This document shows, in pieces, positions 2 through 14,351 of a DNA stretch of 18,998 bases. The translations under genes were made by a program, and so were the position numbers. The stretch comes from a bacterium (GTDB lineage Bacteria; Cyanobacteriota; Vampirovibrionia; Obscuribacterales; Obscuribacteraceae). How positions within the stretch are numbered: the stretch's first letter is position 1; each line of letters starts with the position of its first letter. The stretch lies in contig JAUIJG010000042.1 in the NCBI GenBank assembly GCA_030431355.1, positions 1 through 18,998 on the forward strand, written 5' to 3'. The notes below the pieces were generated by a model, which made no database searches, was not told the DNA's origin, and was given only the letters and a program-made list of their open reading frames with translations.

Positions 2-226
2 GCCATGGTTTTAGAAAGTGGGATATCTCCACAATCTGCCCTGGCTCAAGTAAAAGATGAGCTTGGCTCCAGGTTCGGATTCGAAGTGGAGTATCTGGAA
101 GCCTGTCATCCTGAGAGTCTCGAAATTATGCATGGGAATGAGTATACAGGCGAGCCATTTGTTCTTCTGGTGGCGGCCAAATTGGGAAGCGTAAGATTGA
201 TAGACAATCTTCTGGTTAAAAAGTAA
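2..226 (+). CDS. panC: Pantothenate synthetase (pantoate--beta-alanine ligase), C-terminal part
   Basis: This is the 3' end of a gene that begins before the window; the frame is open from base 2, so the internal ATG at 5 is not the start. PanC joins pantoate and beta-alanine with ATP to make pantothenate, the coenzyme A precursor, in the cytosol. About 74 residues are visible. They match the C-terminal domain of PanC: a VEYLEACHPESLE strand-turn, corresponding to the usual 'VDYVEVVDPETLE' block, and the near-invariant end AAKLGSVRLIDNLL. The ATP- and pantoate-binding N-terminal domain lies outside the window. The stop overlaps the last 11 bases of the convergent ilvC-like gene, so the two are tail-to-tail with no room for a terminator. 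Identification is by family resemblance of a short segment, but the RLIDN ending is characteristic. Confidence 0.85.
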   Translation, partial: AMVLESGISPQSALAQVKDELGSRFGFEVEYLEACHPESLEIMHGNEYTGEPFVLLVAAKLGSVRLIDNLLVKK

Positions 227-1199
227 GGTTTTCTTTGAGCCTTTCGCCGGTTCTGTTTATGCGACTGTTTTTCTCCTCCGACTCGCTGCGGGTCATAAGG
301 TTGTCCGCTGAAGCGCAGTCCTGGATGAATGTTTCGGCAAAAGATCCGTTCTCTATTCTTTGTAGAATGTGCTCCAGGTTGTGACGGGTCTTTCTGTCTA
401 TGATTTCGGGTCCGCTCATATAAGCGCCATACTTTGCCGTGCTGGAAATGGCGCTTCGCATACCGGATAAGCCTCGGTCGAAGAGGAGGTCGGCAATAAG
501 TTTTACCTCTTTGAGGCATGAAATATATGCCAATTCAGGTTGATAGCCTTTGCTTACAAGTGTTTCGAAGCTGGATTTGATCAGCTCCGGCAGTCCTCCA
601 CACAATACTGCCTGTTCACAAAAGAGATCTACATTTGTCTCTTCTTCAAAAGTCGTTTCTATCACTCCGGCTCGGGTTGATCCGATTGCGCCCGCGAAGG
701 CCAGGCCGATCTTTTTTGCTTTTCCGGAGGCGTCCTGTTCTACGGCTAGCAGCGCCGGTAGTCCTGAACCTTCCAGGTAGAGGCTTCTGACCTGGTGTCC
801 AGGCCCTGTAGGTGCCACCAGGATGACATCCGCCTCCCTGGGAAGGGTTATCGTTTTGTTGTGAATGGCGAACCCGTGGGCAAAAACATAGGCTGTTTCA
901 GGTTTTGCCCACTTTGAGATTTCATTTTTGAATACCCGGGGCATCACCTCGTCGGGTAGGGTCATCAGAATCAAATCAGCCGCCTGGGCGGCTTCCTGGA
1001 TTGATGTAGGCTCAAAACCGTCAGCCCTGGCCTCGCTCCATGATTTTCCCTCTATTCTGGCGCCCACCCTGACTTTCATACCGCTATCTCTAAGATTGAG
1101 TGCCTGGGCTCTTCCTTGATTTCCGTACCCGATAACACTTAATTCGAGCTCTTTCAAGTGGCTTGGATCTGCACTTTCGTTATAAAAAATAGTGGCCAT
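216..1199 (-). CDS. ilvC: Class I ketol-acid reductoisomerase homologue with altered active site
   Basis: KARI converts acetolactate to dihydroxyisovalerate with Mg2+ and NAD(P)H in valine/isoleucine synthesis; homologues can also reduce ketopantoate. The 327-aa length fits class I. Visible are the Rossmann motif GYGNQG (24-29), a cofactor loop with GKSW (51-54), FAHGF with His108, ETTFEEETNVDLFCEQ with Glu187, Asp191 and Glu195, CLKE with Glu231, and Ser252 in the knotted C-terminal domain. Two of the eight polar residues conserved in the family are changed: Lys of 'APKGPGH' is Thr131 (codon ACA), and the first Glu of the 'FECLHE' pair is Ser227 (codon TCA). AEYGD also reads AKYGA. Isomerase activity is therefore doubtful and a reductase-only role is possible (inference). 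The start has GGAG at about 7 nt. The gene converges on panC and diverges from the opine-dehydrogenase-like gene. The symbol marks homology, not proven function. Confidence 0.85.
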   Translation of the reverse strand: MATIFYNESADPSHLKELELSVIGYGNQGRAQALNLRDSGMKVRVGARIEGKSWSEARADGFEPTSIQEAAQAADLILMTLPDEVMPRVFKNEISKWAKPETAYVFAHGFAIHNKTITLPREADVILVAPTGPGHQVRSLYLEGSGLPALLAVEQDASGKAKKIGLAFAGAIGSTRAGVIETTFEEETNVDLFCEQAVLCGGLPELIKSSFETLVSKGYQPELAYISCLKEVKLIADLLFDRGLSGMRSAISSTAKYGAYMSGPEIIDRKTRHNLEHILQRIENGSFAETFIQDCASADNLMTRSESEEKNSRINRTGERLKENLTF

Positions 1200-1444: not shown

Positions 1445-2668
1445 ATGATGATGGAGTTTTTTAACCCGGGGGCTTACTTGATTCATTCCAGTCCTTTAGT
1501 TCAGGGTAGCCAAACAAAAGCGGGCTCAGTTGTCGGTTCGGTGAACTCTCAGGAGACCGAGCAAAAGAATAAGCGTCATCGAATATGCATTATCGGTGAT
1601 GGCATAGAGAGTCTTGCGGTCGCTAATTTGTTCAGCGATGAGTCTGTGCAAGTCTTCCCCGTAGACAGCCCGGACAAAGGTTTCTACTTTGGTGTTCATA
1701 GTTTTGAGATCAGGCAAAGAAACGCGAGTGTTTGTTTCTCCAGGGGATCTATAGGCCGCGACCTGGTTTACGAAGATTTGTCTCTATCAGTCAAAGATAG
1801 TCGAGCTGTTTTTGTTTGTGCTGATGCCACCAAGTATAGTGATATTGCGGGGCGGCTTCATGAATATTTAGAGAACGGCCAAGTTATTGCTCTGGTTAAT
1901 GCTCCTCTGGGGGCAGGATTGCAGTTTCAAGAAGCGCTCAGGCAGAATGAATGCCAGGCTCAGGTCAGCATTATCGAGCTGGGCAGAATTTTTGATTCCA
2001 TCCTTGTGGAGTCCGGTGTGCTGTTGATCTCTGGTTTGAGAAAAAGGATTCCGGTTAGCGGCCTCACCCGCAACGACACCCGTAAGGGGTTGCACATTAT
2101 TCAATCCCTGGTGGATGAAACCGTTCCTGCTTCTAATGTCTTTGAACGGGGCTTCACCGACGTGGAGAGAATCGTAAGACCGGTTCTCGCTCTTTGTTTT
2201 GTAATAGGCGCTTCCGGTGCGGAAAATCCCCGGGTAAACGAGTACATGATGAGGTTACTCTCTTCCATCGAAAGCGAGTTGCGTCTCCTCTCCTCCTCTT
2301 ATGGTTTCCGTGCGCCTGACCTACTAAAGTCGATTCATGATTTCATGAATGTGGGCGACCTCGCTTCTGATACTCAGTATGAAACCCTGGAAGAGGCTGT
2401 AAATGAGCTCATAAAGGTCATTCTTGGCGGGGCCGAACTAAAGCAGGATCTTTATTTATCGGTTCTGGAAGAAGATGTTCGGGAAATTTATTCCTTGCTG
2501 GCGGACTTTGGTACCCATGCACATATTTGCCTGCCTACCATCAACAGTGTTCTTGATCTGGCGTCATCCGTCCTGGGCAAAGATATGAGAGAGTGCGGAA
2601 GGACCGTATCTAATCTAGGACTTGTGGGTTTTGATAACCAGGAAATAGTAGATCTGGTCAATAACTAA
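1445..2668 (+). CDS. Opine/octopine dehydrogenase-like Rossmann protein, catalytic His replaced
   Basis: The 407-aa protein has the two-domain layout of the octopine/nopaline dehydrogenase family, which reductively joins an amino acid to a 2-oxo acid using NAD(P)H. A 45-residue N-terminal extension precedes a Rossmann strand RICIIGDGIESLAVA (46-60) with a GxGxxx dinucleotide loop. A second half-site VFVCADATKYSDIAGRL and a 'GQVIALVNAPLGAGLQF' segment (145-161) match the 'GQ-VVLNPG-GGAL-F' part of the family. The C-terminal helical domain starts near 229 (NVFERGFTDVERIVRP). Where family members carry 'NPxIHP' with the catalytic His, this protein has Arg245 (VRP). The catalytic role is therefore uncertain; it may act on another substrate or be non-enzymatic. 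The start is uncertain: ATG ATG ATG at 1445-1453 lacks a clear ribosome site, and an AGGAG near 1550 has no in-frame start after it. Cytosolic; no signal peptide. No terminator follows. Confidence 0.6.
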   Translation: MMMEFFNPGAYLIHSSPLVQGSQTKAGSVVGSVNSQETEQKNKRHRICIIGDGIESLAVANLFSDESVQVFPVDSPDKGFYFGVHSFEIRQRNASVCFSRGSIGRDLVYEDLSLSVKDSRAVFVCADATKYSDIAGRLHEYLENGQVIALVNAPLGAGLQFQEALRQNECQAQVSIIELGRIFDSILVESGVLLISGLRKRIPVSGLTRNDTRKGLHIIQSLVDETVPASNVFERGFTDVERIVRPVLALCFVIGASGAENPRVNEYMMRLLSSIESELRLLSSSYGFRAPDLLKSIHDFMNVGDLASDTQYETLEEAVNELIKVILGGAELKQDLYLSVLEEDVREIYSLLADFGTHAHICLPTINSVLDLASSVLGKDMRECGRTVSNLGLVGFDNQEIVDLVNN

Positions 2669-3152: not shown

Positions 3153-4247
3153 ATGGGTAAATTCACCACAGCCAATTACCCTGAACTCCTCGGAGTTACA
3201 GAGGTATGCCAGATTTCCGATGAGGAAATTTGGAAGAATTTGCTCTCCCCAATAACAAAGGCTTTGCTCGGACCAATCAAGGGTGTTAAACCACCGGTGG
3301 TGCTTGAAACCATCGCTGGATTTTTCCCCGGAGACGAGGTGTCGAACCTCAACCAGCATAAGCTCTATGGTGGAAGAGAAGAGTTTGTTAGGTTCCCCTA
3401 CGTCTCCAACGTCTACGAAACAGCAAATGGACTTTTTGTGGTCAAGCGCGATCTCCAGAAGTTCGAAGTGTTTTGCTGGTTCGGTGATGTGAGCCGTGGC
3501 AGAGGAGAGATGATTTTGAAAGCAGGTCTTCGAGACCGGCGATTTGATGGATCGAAAAGGGCAAACGACTCTGCTCTTCTCGATTACCCTTACGACGACC
3601 CGATTTTTCATCGTCCTTTGAGCGCTGAATTGAAGTCGCTTGAGTTGTCCATCTATGCTTTCATGCCTGGTTCTCGAATCAGTCATGTGGCAGGGGACCT
3701 GGACTACGAGCGCTTCGTACAACAGCCTTTTCGCTACCTATCGGATGTGGAGACGTTCAAGCATTACTTCGATATGGCCTGGCGTTCAAACCGAGCTCCT
3801 GGCCAATACGCGGTGCCCATCCATGATGTCTCCGGTATTGTGCTCGGCGGCTTCAAAAAGCTTGCTCGTAGCGCCGGGTACGACTTGCTGGAGATGGCTC
3901 CCAGTCACTATCATGTGGCTCGCTGGGGTCTTCAACGTGGCTACAGTTTTGCCTACCGCGTTCAGCAAGATGCTTTCGAAGGTTTGCGAAACGGCATCGA
4001 CAGGCTCAAGCGCAAAGGCTTGATTTTAAACCGTGTTCAAGAGTCGTGGTTGCCGGTCATTCAAAGTCTTCGTCCGCAGGAGGAGATTCCGGACAATCTT
4101 TGTCTGGGTGGACCTGTGTGGCCGCAGAACAACATCGATGACCAGTGTCTCTGGCTCTACAAACCAATTAGCAGAAGGGCGCATGGTTTCATACCTGCTT
4201 GCTTCGAGAGCACTCTTGAAGCCGGCAAGGAAGAGAACTGCGCCTGA
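3153..4247 (+). CDS. Conserved protein of unrecognised family, tandem paralogue A
   Basis: I do not recognise this 364-aa protein. It is clearly homologous over nearly its whole length to the next gene (4341-5471). Shared blocks are PELLG near the N-terminus, FPGDEVSNLN, GG-E-FVRFP, a Lys-Arg-Asp turn (VVKRD/VIKRD), LRDRR-DG-KRAND-ALLD, ELS-Y, SHYHVARW (251-258), QESW, IPD-L-LGG--WPQ-NI and W-YKP-S-RA. The first two thirds look beta-rich and the region after SHYHVARW helical. There is no signal peptide or membrane segment, so it is probably cytosolic. The conserved His, Tyr, Arg and Asp residues could form an active or binding site, but no known catalytic motif is visible. The last 20 or so residues do not align with paralogue B. 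The start is set by AAGGA at 3143-3147. It probably forms an operon with the next two genes (93-bp gap, same strand). Confidence 0.85.
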   Translation: MGKFTTANYPELLGVTEVCQISDEEIWKNLLSPITKALLGPIKGVKPPVVLETIAGFFPGDEVSNLNQHKLYGGREEFVRFPYVSNVYETANGLFVVKRDLQKFEVFCWFGDVSRGRGEMILKAGLRDRRFDGSKRANDSALLDYPYDDPIFHRPLSAELKSLELSIYAFMPGSRISHVAGDLDYERFVQQPFRYLSDVETFKHYFDMAWRSNRAPGQYAVPIHDVSGIVLGGFKKLARSAGYDLLEMAPSHYHVARWGLQRGYSFAYRVQQDAFEGLRNGIDRLKRKGLILNRVQESWLPVIQSLRPQEEIPDNLCLGGPVWPQNNIDDQCLWLYKPISRRAHGFIPACFESTLEAGKEENCA

Positions 4248-4340: not shown

Positions 4341-5471
4341 ATGTCCAATAACGACCATTTCAAAGAATCCAACATTCCAGAACTTCTCGGTTTGACTCCT
4401 GTTTCCGTGGTCTCCGACAGGGAGATCTGGGAACACCTGGTAACGCCTCAAGTAAAGGCGATGCTGGGAGACATCATCAGCCGCAAGGTTGAGGTTCGCG
4501 AGCGAACCGAGGGTGATTTTCCGGGAGACGAAGTTTCGAATCTGAATGACCACCGAATGTTCGGCGGCGTGGAAGGATTCGTTCGCTTCCCATTCATCAA
4601 TACCTTCATCCAGACCAAGTATGGTGCCCTCGTCATCAAACGAGACGGCGTCAAGTTTAAGGTCTTCGCATGGTATGGCAAATCGTCAGCCAAGAAGATG
4701 GAGCTGATTTTCAAGGTGGCTCTGCGTGACCGTCGCTATGATGGCACTAAGCGCGCCAATGATACCGCTCTTCTCGACTTCGAGTATGACGATCCCGAGC
4801 TCAACCATGTGCTCGATATCGATGGCATGCCCGAAAATTCCAAGACGGTTGAGCTTTCTGTTTATGGCTATTTGCCAGGCTCTTTGATCGTCGATGCAAC
4901 CGGCGACCAGGAGCTGAACAACTTTGTCGGCAATCCATTTCTGTTTGTCGATAAGCCGGAGAAGTTCATGGAACTTTTCTGGAAAGCCTGGAACAGCACC
5001 AGAAGCCCGGGACAAACCGGTAGCGCCGTCCCTGATGTCGCGCGTCTGGTTCCCAGCGCGGTGGAACGTTTTGCCATCAACCAGGGCTACGACTACATCG
5101 AGAATGCTTCCAGTCACTACCATGTGGCTCGCTGGGCACAGTCCATCGGGTACCTCTATACCTGTGAAGAGCAAGATGCCGCCATCCAGGCTCTGGGTGA
5201 AGGCATCGAACGTTTGAAGTCCGAAGGCAGAGCGCTGAAGCGTCACCAGGAATCATGGGTTTGTGTCTTGCAGCATCTTCCGCGCAAGCACATTCCTGAT
5301 GACCTGTACCTTGGCGGTGCCCAATGGCCCCAGGACAACATCGGTCAACAAAACCTCTGGATGTACAAGCCACTTTCCGACCGCGCCAAAGAGGCTGCGG
5401 CAAAAGCTGGAAAAGTGCAACAGAGGAAGTGCGGTTCTACCAAAAAGAAGACCGCGCGCAAAGAGAGGTAA
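4341..5471 (+). CDS. Conserved protein of unrecognised family, tandem paralogue B
   Basis: This 376-aa protein is the second copy of the tandem pair, co-linear with paralogue A from PELLG through W-YKP-S-RA. Relative to A it has a small insertion before ELSVYGY (DGMPENSKT) and a Lys/Arg-rich C-terminal tail, with KKK and RKER in the last 12 residues, which A lacks. The tail could bind nucleic acid or acidic lipid, but this is inference. SHYHVARW is at 258-265, and the DNA coding for it is almost identical to that of A although the rest has drifted. No signal peptide or membrane span is visible. The start has AGGAG (4328-4332) 8 nt upstream. The codons look richer in C-ending choices (GTC, AAG, GAC, TTC) than many neighbours, perhaps reflecting high expression. 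The stop codon overlaps the ribosome-site region of the small membrane protein that follows. The function is unknown to me. Confidence 0.87.
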   Translation: MSNNDHFKESNIPELLGLTPVSVVSDREIWEHLVTPQVKAMLGDIISRKVEVRERTEGDFPGDEVSNLNDHRMFGGVEGFVRFPFINTFIQTKYGALVIKRDGVKFKVFAWYGKSSAKKMELIFKVALRDRRYDGTKRANDTALLDFEYDDPELNHVLDIDGMPENSKTVELSVYGYLPGSLIVDATGDQELNNFVGNPFLFVDKPEKFMELFWKAWNSTRSPGQTGSAVPDVARLVPSAVERFAINQGYDYIENASSHYHVARWAQSIGYLYTCEEQDAAIQALGEGIERLKSEGRALKRHQESWVCVLQHLPRKHIPDDLYLGGAQWPQDNIGQQNLWMYKPLSDRAKEAAAKAGKVQQRKCGSTKKKTARKER

Positions 5472-11105: not shown

Positions 11106-14100
11106 ATGAGAATTTGTTCCATGGGTTCCGACTCAAGCCTTTTCGACCTCAGCTCTGACGACCTATCATCTCTGCAAGACCAGAGTCGCATTGTGGTATC
11201 TCGCTCGGAGGATAGTGAGCCGGGCAGTGGATTTTTGGCCAATCGACAGGAGCAGACGACAGCCGGGGTGCTGATCGGTTCGGTCAGGGACATTTTAGGC
11301 GAGCCGCAGAGTTTTGAAGAGAAGCAAGAGAGAGCTTCTTCCAACGATTTTTTGGGTCATGTGGTGGCCGACGTTCTGGTCATGATTCCCAAGTTTAAGG
11401 CTGTGAAAGCCGGTATAGCCAGAACAGCCCTTTTAACCAATCCCCATGACGGACTTTCCCAGGACCCTCTTGCCCTGGGTTCTAGCTTTCTCGAAGGAGC
11501 CGCTCTAAACAAAGTAAGCCGGTCTGTGTTGCCGGGAAGCTCGCTAAGTAATCTGACAGAGCGCTATCTGGGCAGTGGTTTGCGGGCTGAGTCCGCCACT
11601 CATTTGAGCGCTGGTTTTGGATTCGGCGCGGTAAAGTCCGGATTTGACTCCAGAACCTGGCTTGATGAGAACGGTGAGCTGTCGGTTACCGCAGGTCTGG
11701 AAACCATGGCAAAGACAGGAACAGCGGCGGCTCTTATCAACTTGCCTGCCGGTCTGGTCGGTATGCGTTCCGCTCGCTGGTCCGGCAATGCCTTCAAGGC
11801 TAATACTCTTGGTCCCAGGGCCCATTCATTCTTGATCGGCACCACGTCTGGTTATACCAGTGGAGCGGTAGTAGGTGGAATCGAGGCTGTTAAGGAAGGG
11901 AAGAGTTTCTCAGAGACCCTGGGGCAGATGAATGAGGCTGGTCTCGTCGGCGCAGGTACAGGCATGCTGTTCATGTCAGCCATGCCCCTGGAGAAGCCGC
12001 TTTATGGAGATCTCAAAAAGCCGGTTCAGCCCAGTCGATTTCGGGAAACCAGCATAGACATGGTCAGTGAGAGGTCCCTGGGGTTGAAGGCCAGGGAATT
12101 TGAGCTTGAAAGTGCGTTCCCGGCAGGCTCAAAGATTAGAGATATAGAGGCTGTTGACGGAACACTGACCTCCAAAAGAAGAAAAATCCCCCTTGAAGAG
12201 ATGGAGTACCATCCCCGGGATGATCTTAAATTGACCGATCTCTCCAGGCGTCTGACCTATCAGGGAAACCGCAAAGAGTCTTTTGCCGTGGTTCCGGAAT
12301 CTTCTAAAGGGAAGCAGTTTGGCTCCTTTGAGGAATTTGCAAGGGTTGTGAGGATGGAGGAAATAGATACAAGAGTATACAAATTCAACAATGGTGAGAC
12401 AGAAATTGTTGTTTCCGAAGGTCATGCCAGGAAGCTGGATCAGATTCGTCAATTGCGTTTGTTAGCTGCTGAGACAACGGCTTTTGACGGACTTTCTCCG
12501 GTGCAAAGATCAAAGATCTCGGCGGGTTTGGACAGCAGTAACCCTCAATATGTGGGAGACTCTATTACGGCTCAGAAGGAGCTTTTAGCGCAGTTTATAG
12601 ACAGGGGTAAGGTAGACAAATCTTATCGTGTTATGAAAGCGAGAGAGTCTCTGGCTAGAAACGCAGACAACCGAGCAGCGCTCCCCGAAGACATTGTCGC
12701 TGTTATTGAGGAGCTGCCAAATCCGGGAATGGTGAAAAGGGTTGTTATTAGTGAAGGTTCCAATCCCAATGATGTCTGGACCCGGCAAACCTATGACCCT
12801 GAATTCGTCTCTGCCGCCACAGCATCTAAAGATGGCGAGATTACGTTTTACAAGCCTAACGTGGACTTTGTCAGTGTGTCCCCGGGCAAAGTCAATATAG
12901 ACGGCAAGTTAAACCGATCTGAGCTACGCTTTTATGCGGACCATGAATGGTCGCACCTTGCCCATTTCGGAGATGATCAGAGCTTCGGACTTTTCAAACT
13001 GGCTGAGGTGGCAGATTTAGATGTATCTGCCGGGAAGACAGCTCTAACCCTGGAGCAGCGGAAGCTCCCGGCGAAAGAGCGCGATCGAACCGGGACAGAC
13101 AAGTATTTTGCAAGGACCTACGCGCGAAGGGATTCCCAGGAAAATTGGGCTGTTCACATGGGGGAAGAATTCATGTCTCCTGAGGTGGCAAACTTTATCT
13201 CGTTGACCGAAGGCGCGCCGGTGAGGAGCACCATACTTGCCAGAAGCGTAAGCTCCAATTCCAGGACCGGAAATGGTCGAAATGTTTTCGGTTTGTCCCT
13301 GGCTCGCAGGGTGCAACATACCCAGGAGAGGGTGATCCCAGAAGCTCAAAAGGTACTGGAAGGAAAAATCGGCAGTGGTTCAGGAACGGAGAGAGTGGCT
13401 GCTGTGGAGCTTCTCGGTCATCTAGGCAATAGAGACAGACATGTCGGTATGCTTCTGAAAGTAGCGGATGATCCGGCTTCCCTCGGTATTCGTGAGAGTG
13501 TCGAAGGGATATCGGACGGCTTTCTAACCAGAATGCATCGCTTGAAAGATCTTGACGAACATTCGCTGGCTGATACCGCATTTGATGCGGCTCGCAGGCT
13601 TTCAACAAACAGAATGCATGGAGAACCCGATGTGAGTTTCCTGGTTGGTCAGGTAAAGGGTTCCAGAGGTCAAGTAAGGGAGCTTGCCCTGGAGCGGCTG
13701 AAAGCATTGCCTGATGGCGATGAACTTGTGCGTTTTGCCCGGCTTGCCGGAGACGAAACGAACATGGGTGCCTTAATGGAATTGTTGCCCAAGGTCAGCA
13801 GCAAGCAAGCCCAGAGTCTTGTCTTTGAAGAGATTATCAATCTGGCCAAAGGCTCTGAATTTGGCTCTCAATTTACCACCGCCTTTCTCGTTAAAACTAT
13901 AAGATTCATGCCCTCCCAGAGGCTAAGAGCCCTGGAGGTTCTTGGTGATAAGGTGGCAAGCGATCCCGGTGTTCCTTCGAAGGAGCTGGAAGGTTATATG
14001 CTTACTTTGACAGGCAATCATGACAAGCAGGTGGCGGCCCGGGCTGAGAAGCTTTTGCATTCAATGCAAGAGTCTAGAGCAGTTTCTGAAGCGATTAATC

Positions 14101-14351
14101 TGATTGGCTCCGGCGGAAGCGATGGACGGATTAAGGGGTTGCGAATGGCTCAGCAGCACAAAGATAGACGGCTTATAGCGCCTGCGCTGAAGATGGCTGT
14201 GAGTGGAACTCCGGAGGAAGCCGCCCTTGCTTACCAGGTGCTTCAGCAGTTTGAGTGGCGTCTTGTTCGTCACGAGGCTGGAGTATTGAAATCCGATGGT
14301 GTCGATTTTGACACCGCCAAGCTGAGAGATCGTCTGACAAAAGCCGGGTAA
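11106..14351 (+). CDS. 1081-aa protein with HEWSH metalloprotease motif and C-terminal HEAT-like repeats
   Basis: A very long protein of no family I can name. Residues 1-80 are polar and low in order. Residues 80-300 alternate with glycine-rich hydrophobic stretches (AAALINLPAGLVGM, FLIGTTSGYTSGAVVGGI, GLVGAGTGMLFMSAMP) that could insert in or pack on a membrane. Residues 605-620 hold YADHEWSHLAHF: His613-Glu614-x2-His617 is a zinc HExxH signature. A possible third ligand is Glu679 in SQENWAVHMGEEF, a spacing and context (ENWA, like 'EdfA') seen in HExxH peptidases. From about 758 to the end the sequence has helical pairs of the HEAT/ARM type, such as ERVAAVELLGHLGNRDRHV, RELALERLKALPDGDEL and AALAYQVLQQFEWRLV. 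There is no classical signal peptide. The ATG at 11106 and the in-frame ATG at 11121 both lack a clear ribosome site, so the start is unsure. The gene converges on mutL with a 13-bp gap. Confidence 0.85.
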   Translation: MRICSMGSDSSLFDLSSDDLSSLQDQSRIVVSRSEDSEPGSGFLANRQEQTTAGVLIGSVRDILGEPQSFEEKQERASSNDFLGHVVADVLVMIPKFKAVKAGIARTALLTNPHDGLSQDPLALGSSFLEGAALNKVSRSVLPGSSLSNLTERYLGSGLRAESATHLSAGFGFGAVKSGFDSRTWLDENGELSVTAGLETMAKTGTAAALINLPAGLVGMRSARWSGNAFKANTLGPRAHSFLIGTTSGYTSGAVVGGIEAVKEGKSFSETLGQMNEAGLVGAGTGMLFMSAMPLEKPLYGDLKKPVQPSRFRETSIDMVSERSLGLKAREFELESAFPAGSKIRDIEAVDGTLTSKRRKIPLEEMEYHPRDDLKLTDLSRRLTYQGNRKESFAVVPESSKGKQFGSFEEFARVVRMEEIDTRVYKFNNGETEIVVSEGHARKLDQIRQLRLLAAETTAFDGLSPVQRSKISAGLDSSNPQYVGDSITAQKELLAQFIDRGKVDKSYRVMKARESLARNADNRAALPEDIVAVIEELPNPGMVKRVVISEGSNPNDVWTRQTYDPEFVSAATASKDGEITFYKPNVDFVSVSPGKVNIDGKLNRSELRFYADHEWSHLAHFGDDQSFGLFKLAEVADLDVSAGKTALTLEQRKLPAKERDRTGTDKYFARTYARRDSQENWAVHMGEEFMSPEVANFISLTEGAPVRSTILARSVSSNSRTGNGRNVFGLSLARRVQHTQERVIPEAQKVLEGKIGSGSGTERVAAVELLGHLGNRDRHVGMLLKVADDPASLGIRESVEGISDGFLTRMHRLKDLDEHSLADTAFDAARRLSTNRMHGEPDVSFLVGQVKGSRGQVRELALERLKALPDGDELVRFARLAGDETNMGALMELLPKVSSKQAQSLVFEEIINLAKGSEFGSQFTTAFLVKTIRFMPSQRLRALEVLGDKVASDPGVPSKELEGYMLTLTGNHDKQVAARAEKLLHSMQESRAVSEAINLIGSGGSDGRIKGLRMAQQHKDRRLIAPALKMAVSGTPEEAALAYQVLQQFEWRLVRHEAGVLKSDGVDFDTAKLRDRLTKAG

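What the first reader, a model, noticed from the sequence alone, without database searches (positions are those of the whole stretch)
216..1199. KARI homologue lacking two conserved active-site residues, next to panC
Seen: Thr131 stands where the family has the Lys of 'APKGPGH', and Ser227 where it has the first Glu of 'FECLHE'. The His, the D/E pair, the other Glu and the Ser remain. Both codons are unambiguous (ACA, TCA) inside an intact frame. Known: these correspond to two of the eight conserved polar residues of E. coli KARI (K155 and E389), and KARI can act as a ketopantoate reductase, standing in for PanE in some bacteria. Inference: this may be a reductase-only KARI, possibly supplying pantoate to the neighbouring PanC, with the true ilvC elsewhere.
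Basis: partly seen in the sequence, partly recalled or inferred. Interest (0 to 1): 0.72.

Follow-up and report, generated by a model that had tools for sequence, protein, structure and literature searches.

The report
KARI turned probable ketopantoate reductase
A gene labelled as a branched-chain amino acid enzyme has lost part of that enzyme's two-metal active site and sits beside a vitamin B5 gene, and comparison of genomes suggests that it now makes a vitamin B5 precursor; a similar change seems to have happened separately in another group of bacteria.

Summary
The KARI homologue (216-1199, minus strand) has Thr131 for Lys and Ser227 for Glu, and also Lys230 for His and Cys194 for Gly. All 120 listed homologues share all four; 33 such loci form one clade in the Melainabacteria (Obscuribacterales). 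Ser227 removes a ligand of the second Mg2+; the first Mg2+ site stays.

Of 32 genomes with the variant, 12 also hold a second, canonical-type KARI; only these 12 reach the acetolactate synthase cut-off, and 11 have IlvD. The other 20 have neither, so the variant is unlikely to make valine there. It lies within 2 kb of panC in 23 of 32. In 6 related genomes without it, the same slot, between an opine-dehydrogenase-like gene and panC, holds a DUF2520 (PanG-type) reductase. Chloroflexota have a separately evolved variant (Val131, Gln231); both loci held lie beside panC.

Best reading: a KARI converted, probably twice, into a reductase-only ketopantoate reductase. Against it: PanE co-occurs in 16 of 26 genomes with panB and panC, panC is convergent, and nothing was assayed. 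The window's own genome is not held; DUF2520 was not searched genome-wide.

The parts
216..1199 (-). Variant class I KARI homologue, 327 aa; predicted reductase-only ketopantoate reductase
   Evidence: KARI_N and KARI_C; T131, C194, S227, K230 in all 120 listed homologues; AlphaFold2 model mean pLDDT 90.6
807..809 (-). Codon 131, ACA Thr in place of the family Lys
618..629 (-). Codons 191-194 and the base before codon 195: Asp191 (Mg(I)/Mg(II) bridge) kept, Cys194 for Gly; Glu195 (615-617) kept
   Evidence: ligand roles from passages of PMC5940873
519..521 (-). Codon 227, TCA Ser in place of a Mg(II) ligand Glu
510..512 (-). Codon 230, AAA Lys where canonical KARIs have His, Asn or Gln
2..226 (+). 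3' end of panC (pantoate-beta-alanine ligase), convergent, stop ends overlap by 11 bases
   Evidence: PF02569 positions 211-267; its homologues lie within 2 kb of the variant in 23 of 32 genomes
1445..2668 (+). Opine-dehydrogenase-like gene, divergent from the KARI gene; the other border of the slot
   Evidence: Octopine_DH 22.4 bits, under the cut-off of 30; best PDB match 1bg6, N-(1-D-carboxylethyl)-L-norvaline dehydrogenase, TM 0.73; found in 30 of 33 variant loci counting the window

Best explanation
The protein is a class I KARI paralogue that has become a dedicated NAD(P)H-dependent ketopantoate reductase (2-dehydropantoate to pantoate), feeding PanC. SHOWN: fold and family; loss of Lys131 and of the Mg(II) ligand Glu227; retention of Asp191 and Glu195 (Mg(I)), His108, Glu231 and Ser252; gain of invariant Lys230; presence in 20 genomes in which no canonical KARI, IlvD or cut-off-level acetolactate synthase was found; place beside panC; use of the same slot by a DUF2520 reductase in related genomes; a separate origin of a comparable variant beside panC/panB in Chloroflexota. 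INFERRED: without Lys131 and the second Mg2+ the alkyl migration of acetohydroxyacids cannot run, while hydride transfer from the cofactor to a 2-keto acid held on Mg(I) can; Lys230, one residue before Glu231 on the same helix, may stand in for the second metal as electrophile or proton donor; the substrate is ketopantoate, a known side substrate of ordinary IlvC.
For: Invariant altered site. One clade of 33 variant rows, SH-aLRT 99. Mg(I) = D191, E195 and Mg(II) = D191, E227, E231 in class I KARIs (passages of PMC5940873, and PMC8615647). Of 32 variant genomes the 12 with a second KARI are the 12 that pass the acetolactate synthase cut-off, 11 of them with IlvD; 0 of the other 20 have either. 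panC within 2 kb in 23 of 32, within 200 bases in 15. The slot between the opine-dehydrogenase-like gene and panC holds a Rossmann-like + DUF2520 reductase in G062, G102, G110, G115, G142 and G138 (the last over two contig ends), next to panC on the same strand; 6 such proteins have no tblastn match in the 434,651 bases of the 32 variant loci. DUF2520 proteins are homologues of the shown Francisella ketopantoate reductase FTT1388/PanG (passage of PMC4572677). Among genomes with panB and panC, PanE (ApbA_C) is missing in 9 of 16 variant-only genomes, 0 of 9 KARI-less and 1 of 9 canonical-only ones (Fisher p 0.008 and 0.002). Type III pantothenate kinase lies directly upstream in L029. Chloroflexota variants beside panC, and in L039 also panB; one common origin rejected, AU p 0.007. 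Ordinary IlvC works as a ketopantoate reductase in B. subtilis (passage of PMC11487621) and in Buchnera, with C. glutamicum cited (passages of PMC4306246).
Against: No activity data. PanE-type proteins occur in 19 of 32 variant genomes, in 16 of the 26 with panB and panC; 9 of 9 scanned, of 23 hits, pass the apbA_panE subfamily cut-off, so the variant is not needed as the only such enzyme there. panB was not found in 5 of 32. panC is convergent, not co-transcribed; in 7 of 32 it lies over 60 kb away, on another contig or was not found, and in 2 more 3.7 and 6.5 kb away. Eight of the 20 variant-only genomes have weaker relatives of acetolactate synthase (206-363 bits, cut-off 538). L024, L028 and L029 have also lost Asp191 (Asn) and have Phe227, and L028 and L029 also His108, so even the Mg(I) argument fails there. 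The opine-dehydrogenase-like neighbour is an equally placed candidate. The presence/absence counts are not corrected for kinship and come from draft genomes with no completeness shown. The predicted monomer matched KARI chains at TM 0.6 and rmsd near 20, so no active-site geometry was measured.
Confidence: 0.65

Rival explanations
1. A reductase-only KARI acting on another 2-keto acid, perhaps together with the opine-dehydrogenase-like neighbour, which itself or another enzyme would make pantoate; adjacency to panC would be inherited gene order.
For: The opine-dehydrogenase-like gene is divergent from the variant in 30 of 33 loci and borders the same slot in genomes without the variant. PanE co-occurs in 19 of 32. 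KARIs reduce several 2-keto acids (abstract and passages of PMC4353338).
Against: The DUF2520-for-KARI exchange in the same slot and the Chloroflexota variants beside panB/panC point at the pan pathway. The neighbour is far less conserved (20-60% identity to the window copy) and its dinucleotide-binding loop is degenerate in several loci. L028 and L029 carry the variant beside panC without that neighbour.
Confidence: 0.22
2. It is still a working ketol-acid reductoisomerase of valine/isoleucine synthesis with a tolerant active site.
For: NCBIfam ketol-acid reductoisomerase models score it above their cut-offs (PRK05479 424 of 336, ilvC 356 of 226 bits).
Against: Lys131 and a Mg(II) ligand are gone; 20 of 32 genomes lack IlvD and a cut-off-level acetolactate synthase; where the pathway exists a second KARI is there too, in 8 of the 12 read or placed on the same contig as ilvD and in all 12 on the contig of acetolactate synthase or of ilvD.
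Confidence: 0.04
3. A pseudoenzyme or a subunit with a structural or regulatory part.
For: L024, L028 and L029 have lost still more catalytic residues but keep the fold and reading frame.
Against: In the main group the cofactor loop, His108, Asp191, Glu195, Lys230, Glu231 and Ser252 are invariant in the window and 120 listed homologues, down to 55% identity, which points to a selected active site.
Confidence: 0.07

Closest known systems
Class I ketol-acid reductoisomerase (IlvC, EC 1.1.1.86)
   Same: KARI_N and KARI_C over the whole length, GxGxxG loop, His108, Asp191, Glu195, Glu231, Ser252; 41-46% identity to the canonical copies in the same genomes
   Different: Lys131Thr, Gly194Cys, Glu227Ser, His230Lys; not on the ilv contig; kept in genomes where the rest of the pathway was not found
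IlvC acting as ketopantoate reductase (C. glutamicum, Buchnera, B. subtilis)
   Same: A KARI scaffold that reduces ketopantoate
   Different: Those are ordinary bifunctional KARIs; here the isomerase half of the site is dismantled and the gene lies beside panC
PanG-type ketopantoate reductase (Rossmann-like + DUF2520)
   Same: Occupies the same slot between the opine-dehydrogenase-like gene and panC in related genomes
   Different: A different family; no DUF2520 domain in the window protein
PanE/ApbA ketopantoate reductase (EC 1.1.1.169)
   Same: Proposed reaction; same 6-phosphogluconate dehydrogenase superfamily (passage of PMC4353338)
   Different: No ApbA domain match; different C-terminal fold
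Chloroflexota KARI variant (L039, L041; this work)
   Same: Lys131 lost, one Mg(II) ligand lost, beside panC
   Different: The other ligand is lost (Glu231Gln, Glu227 kept), Val131 not Thr, separate origin

Membership tests
Ketol-acid reductoisomerase (EC 1.1.1.86) | KARI_N and KARI_C domains, full length | tested here: met
   202.9 and 157.8 bits
Ketol-acid reductoisomerase (EC 1.1.1.86) | Mg(I) ligands Asp191 and Glu195 | tested here: met
   Present in the window and all 120 listed homologues
Ketol-acid reductoisomerase (EC 1.1.1.86) | Mg(II) ligands Asp191, Glu227 and Glu231 | tested here: not met
   Glu227 is Ser in the window and all 120 listed homologues; 78 of 78 canonical rows have Glu
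Ketol-acid reductoisomerase (EC 1.1.1.86) | Active-site Lys of APKGPGH | tested here: not met
   Thr in the window and all 120 listed homologues; Lys in 78 of 78 canonical rows
Ketol-acid reductoisomerase (EC 1.1.1.86) | Pathway partners in the genome (acetolactate synthase, IlvD) | tested here: not met
   Neither in 20 of 32 variant genomes at the cut-offs used; both in 11 of the 12 with a second KARI; not testable for the window's own genome
Ketol-acid reductoisomerase (EC 1.1.1.86) | Isomerisation and reduction of acetohydroxyacids | not testable with these tools
   needs an assay
Ketopantoate reductase by function (EC 1.1.1.169) | Genomic link to panB/panC | tested here: met
   panC within 2 kb in 23 of 32; two Chloroflexota loci
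Ketopantoate reductase by function (EC 1.1.1.169) | Complements missing PanE in genomes with panB and panC | tested here: inconclusive
   PanE missing in 9 of 16 variant-only genomes against 0 of 9 KARI-less and 1 of 9 canonical-only, but present in the other 7 of 16 and in 9 of 10 with both KARIs; DUF2520 not searched genome-wide
Ketopantoate reductase by function (EC 1.1.1.169) | Reduces ketopantoate | not testable with these tools
   needs an assay
PanE/ApbA protein family | ApbA/ApbA_C domains | tested here: not met
   no match at E 0.001
PanG-type (DUF2520) family | Rossmann-like + DUF2520 domains | tested here: not met
   no match at E 0.001

The most novel reading that the evidence does not exclude
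The KARI scaffold has been converted at least twice, in Obscuribacterales and in Chloroflexota, into a dedicated ketopantoate reductase by taking the second Mg2+ site apart (Lys131 plus Glu227 in one, Lys131 plus Glu231 in the other), and in both groups some members go on to lose the bridging Asp191, so that a two-metal isomeroreductase turns stepwise into a one-metal and finally perhaps metal-free reductase; in Obscuribacterales Lys230 replaces the lost metal, and the gene took the place of a PanG-type gene at the panC locus.
Probability: 0.45. Interest if true: 0.75.

Novelty: new variant of a known kind. Interest (0 to 1): 0.6.

Why it matters
Automatic annotation calls these proteins ketol-acid reductoisomerase, which would credit 20 of the 32 genomes examined with a valine/isoleucine step that the rest of the pathway does not support. 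If the reading holds, it gives a natural series, with two separate origins, of how a bifunctional two-metal enzyme is reduced to one of its two half-reactions, and it fills the ketopantoate reductase gap in 10 genomes that have panB and panC but no PanE.

Tried and rejected
Rejected: sequencing error or a one-off change (120 of 120 listed homologues agree); operon with panC (convergent, stop ends overlap; 21 of the 23 pairs within 2 kb are convergent, 2 are on one strand); a working BCAA enzyme. Led nowhere: the first genome-contig scan with the single protein found no relative; the PDB fold search of the KARI model returned KARIs only at TM 0.6 with rmsd near 20, so Lys230 could not be placed relative to the metals; the phylum draw of 386 genomes at E 1e-97 listed 11 genomes, G019 and ten others at 49-50% identity; the three of these read (L197-L199) are canonical, the other seven were not read. 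L060 (Myxococcota, Thr131 + Gln231) shows no pan gene among the ORFs of 140 aa or more listed near it (not scanned with Pfam). Paper searches for a KARI specialised as ketopantoate reductase or for this clade showed none: (open-licence PMC only); Tyagi et al. 2005 on E. coli KARI mutants is recalled and was seen only as a reference; Miller et al. 2013 on PanG is not held and was seen only as cited in PMC4572677. The name PanG is used otherwise for B. subtilis YkpB, a PanE relative.

Full report
1. The observation. The ORF at 216-1199 on the minus strand encodes 327 aa and is a full-length KARI homologue by Pfam and NCBIfam. The 120 homologues listed, the best of 8000 scored, all share the four residues. 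Against 78 canonical rows, 150 variant rows (the window, 120 listed proteins, 29 loci; the two sets overlap) differ at 11 positions by the threshold used, and Thr131, Leu147, Cys194, Pro204, Ile226, Ser227, Lys230 and Val232 are fixed in 150 of 150. Seven rows were set aside before that count: L024, L028, L029 (more derived) and L039, L041, L060, L171 (odd). Most of these positions are in or near the active-site motifs.

2. What the residues do. In class I KARIs with the same numbering Mg(I) is held by Asp191 and Glu195 and Mg(II) by Asp191, Glu227 and Glu231 (passages of PMC5940873); in the Methanothermococcus enzyme Glu227 is only a distant contact of site B (passages of PMC8615647). The variant therefore keeps the first site and loses part of the second. 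That mutants at the corresponding E. coli positions can lose isomerisation and keep reduction is recalled from Tyagi et al. 2005 and was not seen; that the two activities can be separated in vitro is stated in PMC4353338 (passage).

3. Who has it. A scan of genome contigs with the alignment gave 519 relatives, of which the best 80 were kept. Twenty-nine (L001-L029) have Thr131: 26 of them the full Thr/Ser/Lys set, and L024, L028, L029 with Asn191 and Phe227 (L024 also Gln230; L028 and L029 also Ser108). Of the other 51, 48 have Lys131 and Glu227, and L039, L041 and L060 are odd. Twenty of the 29 titles name Obscuribacter, Obscuribacterales or Melainabacteria, 4 name cyanobacteria, 4 only a bacterium and 1 a proteobacterium; all 29 genomes are in the class drawn around Obscuribacter phosphatis (G019). 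Three more (G041, G106, G146) came from that class. The 33 variant rows, window included, form one side of a branch (SH-aLRT 99). L171 (G068) is a long-branched paralogue with GYGNQG, Lys131 and Glu227.

4. It is not the valine enzyme where it stands alone. Ten of G001-G029 hold a second KARI, and these ten read as canonical; G106 and G146 hold a second copy of 44-45% identity, not read, on the same contigs as ilvD and acetolactate synthase. So 12 of 32 have both and 20 have the variant alone. IlvD: 11 of the 12, 0 of the 20. Acetolactate synthase over the TIGR00118 cut-off: 12 of the 12, 0 of the 20; 8 of the 20 have weaker relatives of 206-363 bits. All 12 canonical-only genomes chosen as a comparison have IlvD (six of their KARIs were read). 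The genomes are drafts with no completeness shown.

5. Gene context. The variant lies within 2 kb of panC in 23 of 32 genomes, within 200 bases in 15; of the 23, 21 are convergent and 2 (G025, G026) on one strand. In 2 more panC is 3.7 and 6.5 kb away, in 2 about 70 kb, in 4 on another contig and in 1 not found. The opine-dehydrogenase-like gene lies divergently on the other side in 30 of 33 loci counting the window; L028 and L029 lack it and L023 is cut off by its contig end. In L029 a type III pantothenate kinase gene lies directly upstream on the same strand (PF03309 81.9 bits); in L028 it is 4.6 kb upstream.

6. The slot. In class members without the variant, the opine-dehydrogenase-like gene was again found near panC. 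Ten such genomes were fetched. In six (G062, G102, G110, G115, G142, G138; G138 over two contig ends) the gene between the two is a Rossmann-like + DUF2520 reductase on panC's strand; in G067 the same kind follows panB-panC; in G052, G104 and G132 none lies there. G102 has no KARI match at all at E 1e-40; the other five of the six have one canonical-type copy. tblastn with six of these proteins finds nothing in the 434,651 bases of the 32 variant loci. DUF2520 proteins are homologues of Francisella FTT1388, a shown ketopantoate reductase (passage of PMC4572677). Whether DUF2520 genes lie elsewhere in the variant genomes could not be searched, the cap being used.

7. Phyletic pattern. panB is found in 27 of 32 variant genomes, panC in 31 and a PanE-type protein in 19. 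Among genomes with both panB and panC, PanE is missing in 9 of 16 variant-only, 1 of 10 variant-plus-canonical, 0 of 9 KARI-less and 1 of 9 canonical-only genomes (Fisher 9/16 against 0/9 p 0.008, against 1/18 p 0.002, not corrected for kinship). This fits a ketopantoate reductase, but in 16 of 26 pan-complete variant genomes a PanE-type protein is present as well; 9 of 9 scanned pass the apbA_panE cut-off. Redundancy of this kind is known: B. subtilis has three ketopantoate reductases, IlvC among them (passage of PMC11487621).

8. A second origin. L039 and L041 (Chloroflexota) have Val131 and Gln231. In L041 the gene is convergent with panC (PF02569 340 bits), in L039 with panB (PF02548 379 bits) followed by panC (289 bits). 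Of the 120 homologues of L041 that were listed (of 7980), 33 lack Lys131: 28 Val131/Gln231, 1 Ile131/Gln231 and 4 Val131/Asn191/Thr231; 87 are canonical at these sites. With eight trait columns left out, the Chloroflexota variants form one group (99/99) beside canonical rows from the same search, some of them named Ktedonobacter or Thermogemmatispora, and a tree that holds the two variant groups together is rejected (AU p 0.007; the groups were named after the tree had been seen, and only two loci give the Chloroflexota context). L060 (Myxococcota) has Thr131 and Gln231 without a pan gene among the ORFs listed near it.

9. The neighbour. The opine-dehydrogenase-like protein is modelled at mean pLDDT 82.9; its best PDB match is 1bg6, a carboxyethylnorvaline dehydrogenase (TM 0.73), with ketopantoate reductases further down. 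It diverges fast (20-60% identity to the window copy). It is a rival candidate for a pantoate-forming enzyme and is not ruled out.

10. Verdict. What it works like: most likely a one-metal, lysine-assisted ketopantoate reductase built on a KARI. What it is a member of: the KARI protein family by fold and domains, but not a ketol-acid reductoisomerase by its defining second metal site. No assay was possible; the step from reductase to ketopantoate is an inference from context.

Noticed in passing
L039:3886-4881 and L041:8001-8993: Chloroflexota KARI paralogues with Val131 and Gln231 beside panB/panC, a separate origin of a comparable change.
   Followed up: partly
L024:8001-8981, L028:8001-8981, L029:4010-4990; P0136, P0143, P0152, P0220: In both variant groups some members have also lost the metal-bridging Asp191 (Asn), which suggests a metal-free site.
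   Followed up: partly
L060:8001-8945: A Myxococcota KARI homologue with Thr131 and Gln231; no pan gene among the listed ORFs near it.
   Followed up: no
L171:2938-3921: A second, long-branched KARI paralogue in G068 with GYGNQGR, Ser194 and Tyr230 but Lys131 and Glu227, next to a class II tRNA synthetase gene.
   Followed up: partly
window 3153-4247 and 4341-5471: Two tandem paralogous genes (364 and 376 aa) without any Pfam match, found beside the opine-dehydrogenase-like gene in many loci of this group; function unknown.
   Followed up: no
window 1445-2668: Fast-evolving opine-dehydrogenase-like protein whose dinucleotide-binding loop is degenerate in several relatives; five of the variant genomes searched hold a second, more distant copy.
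   Followed up: partly
window 11106-14351: A 1081-aa ORF without a Pfam match; a weak relative of its start lies in L017.
   Followed up: no
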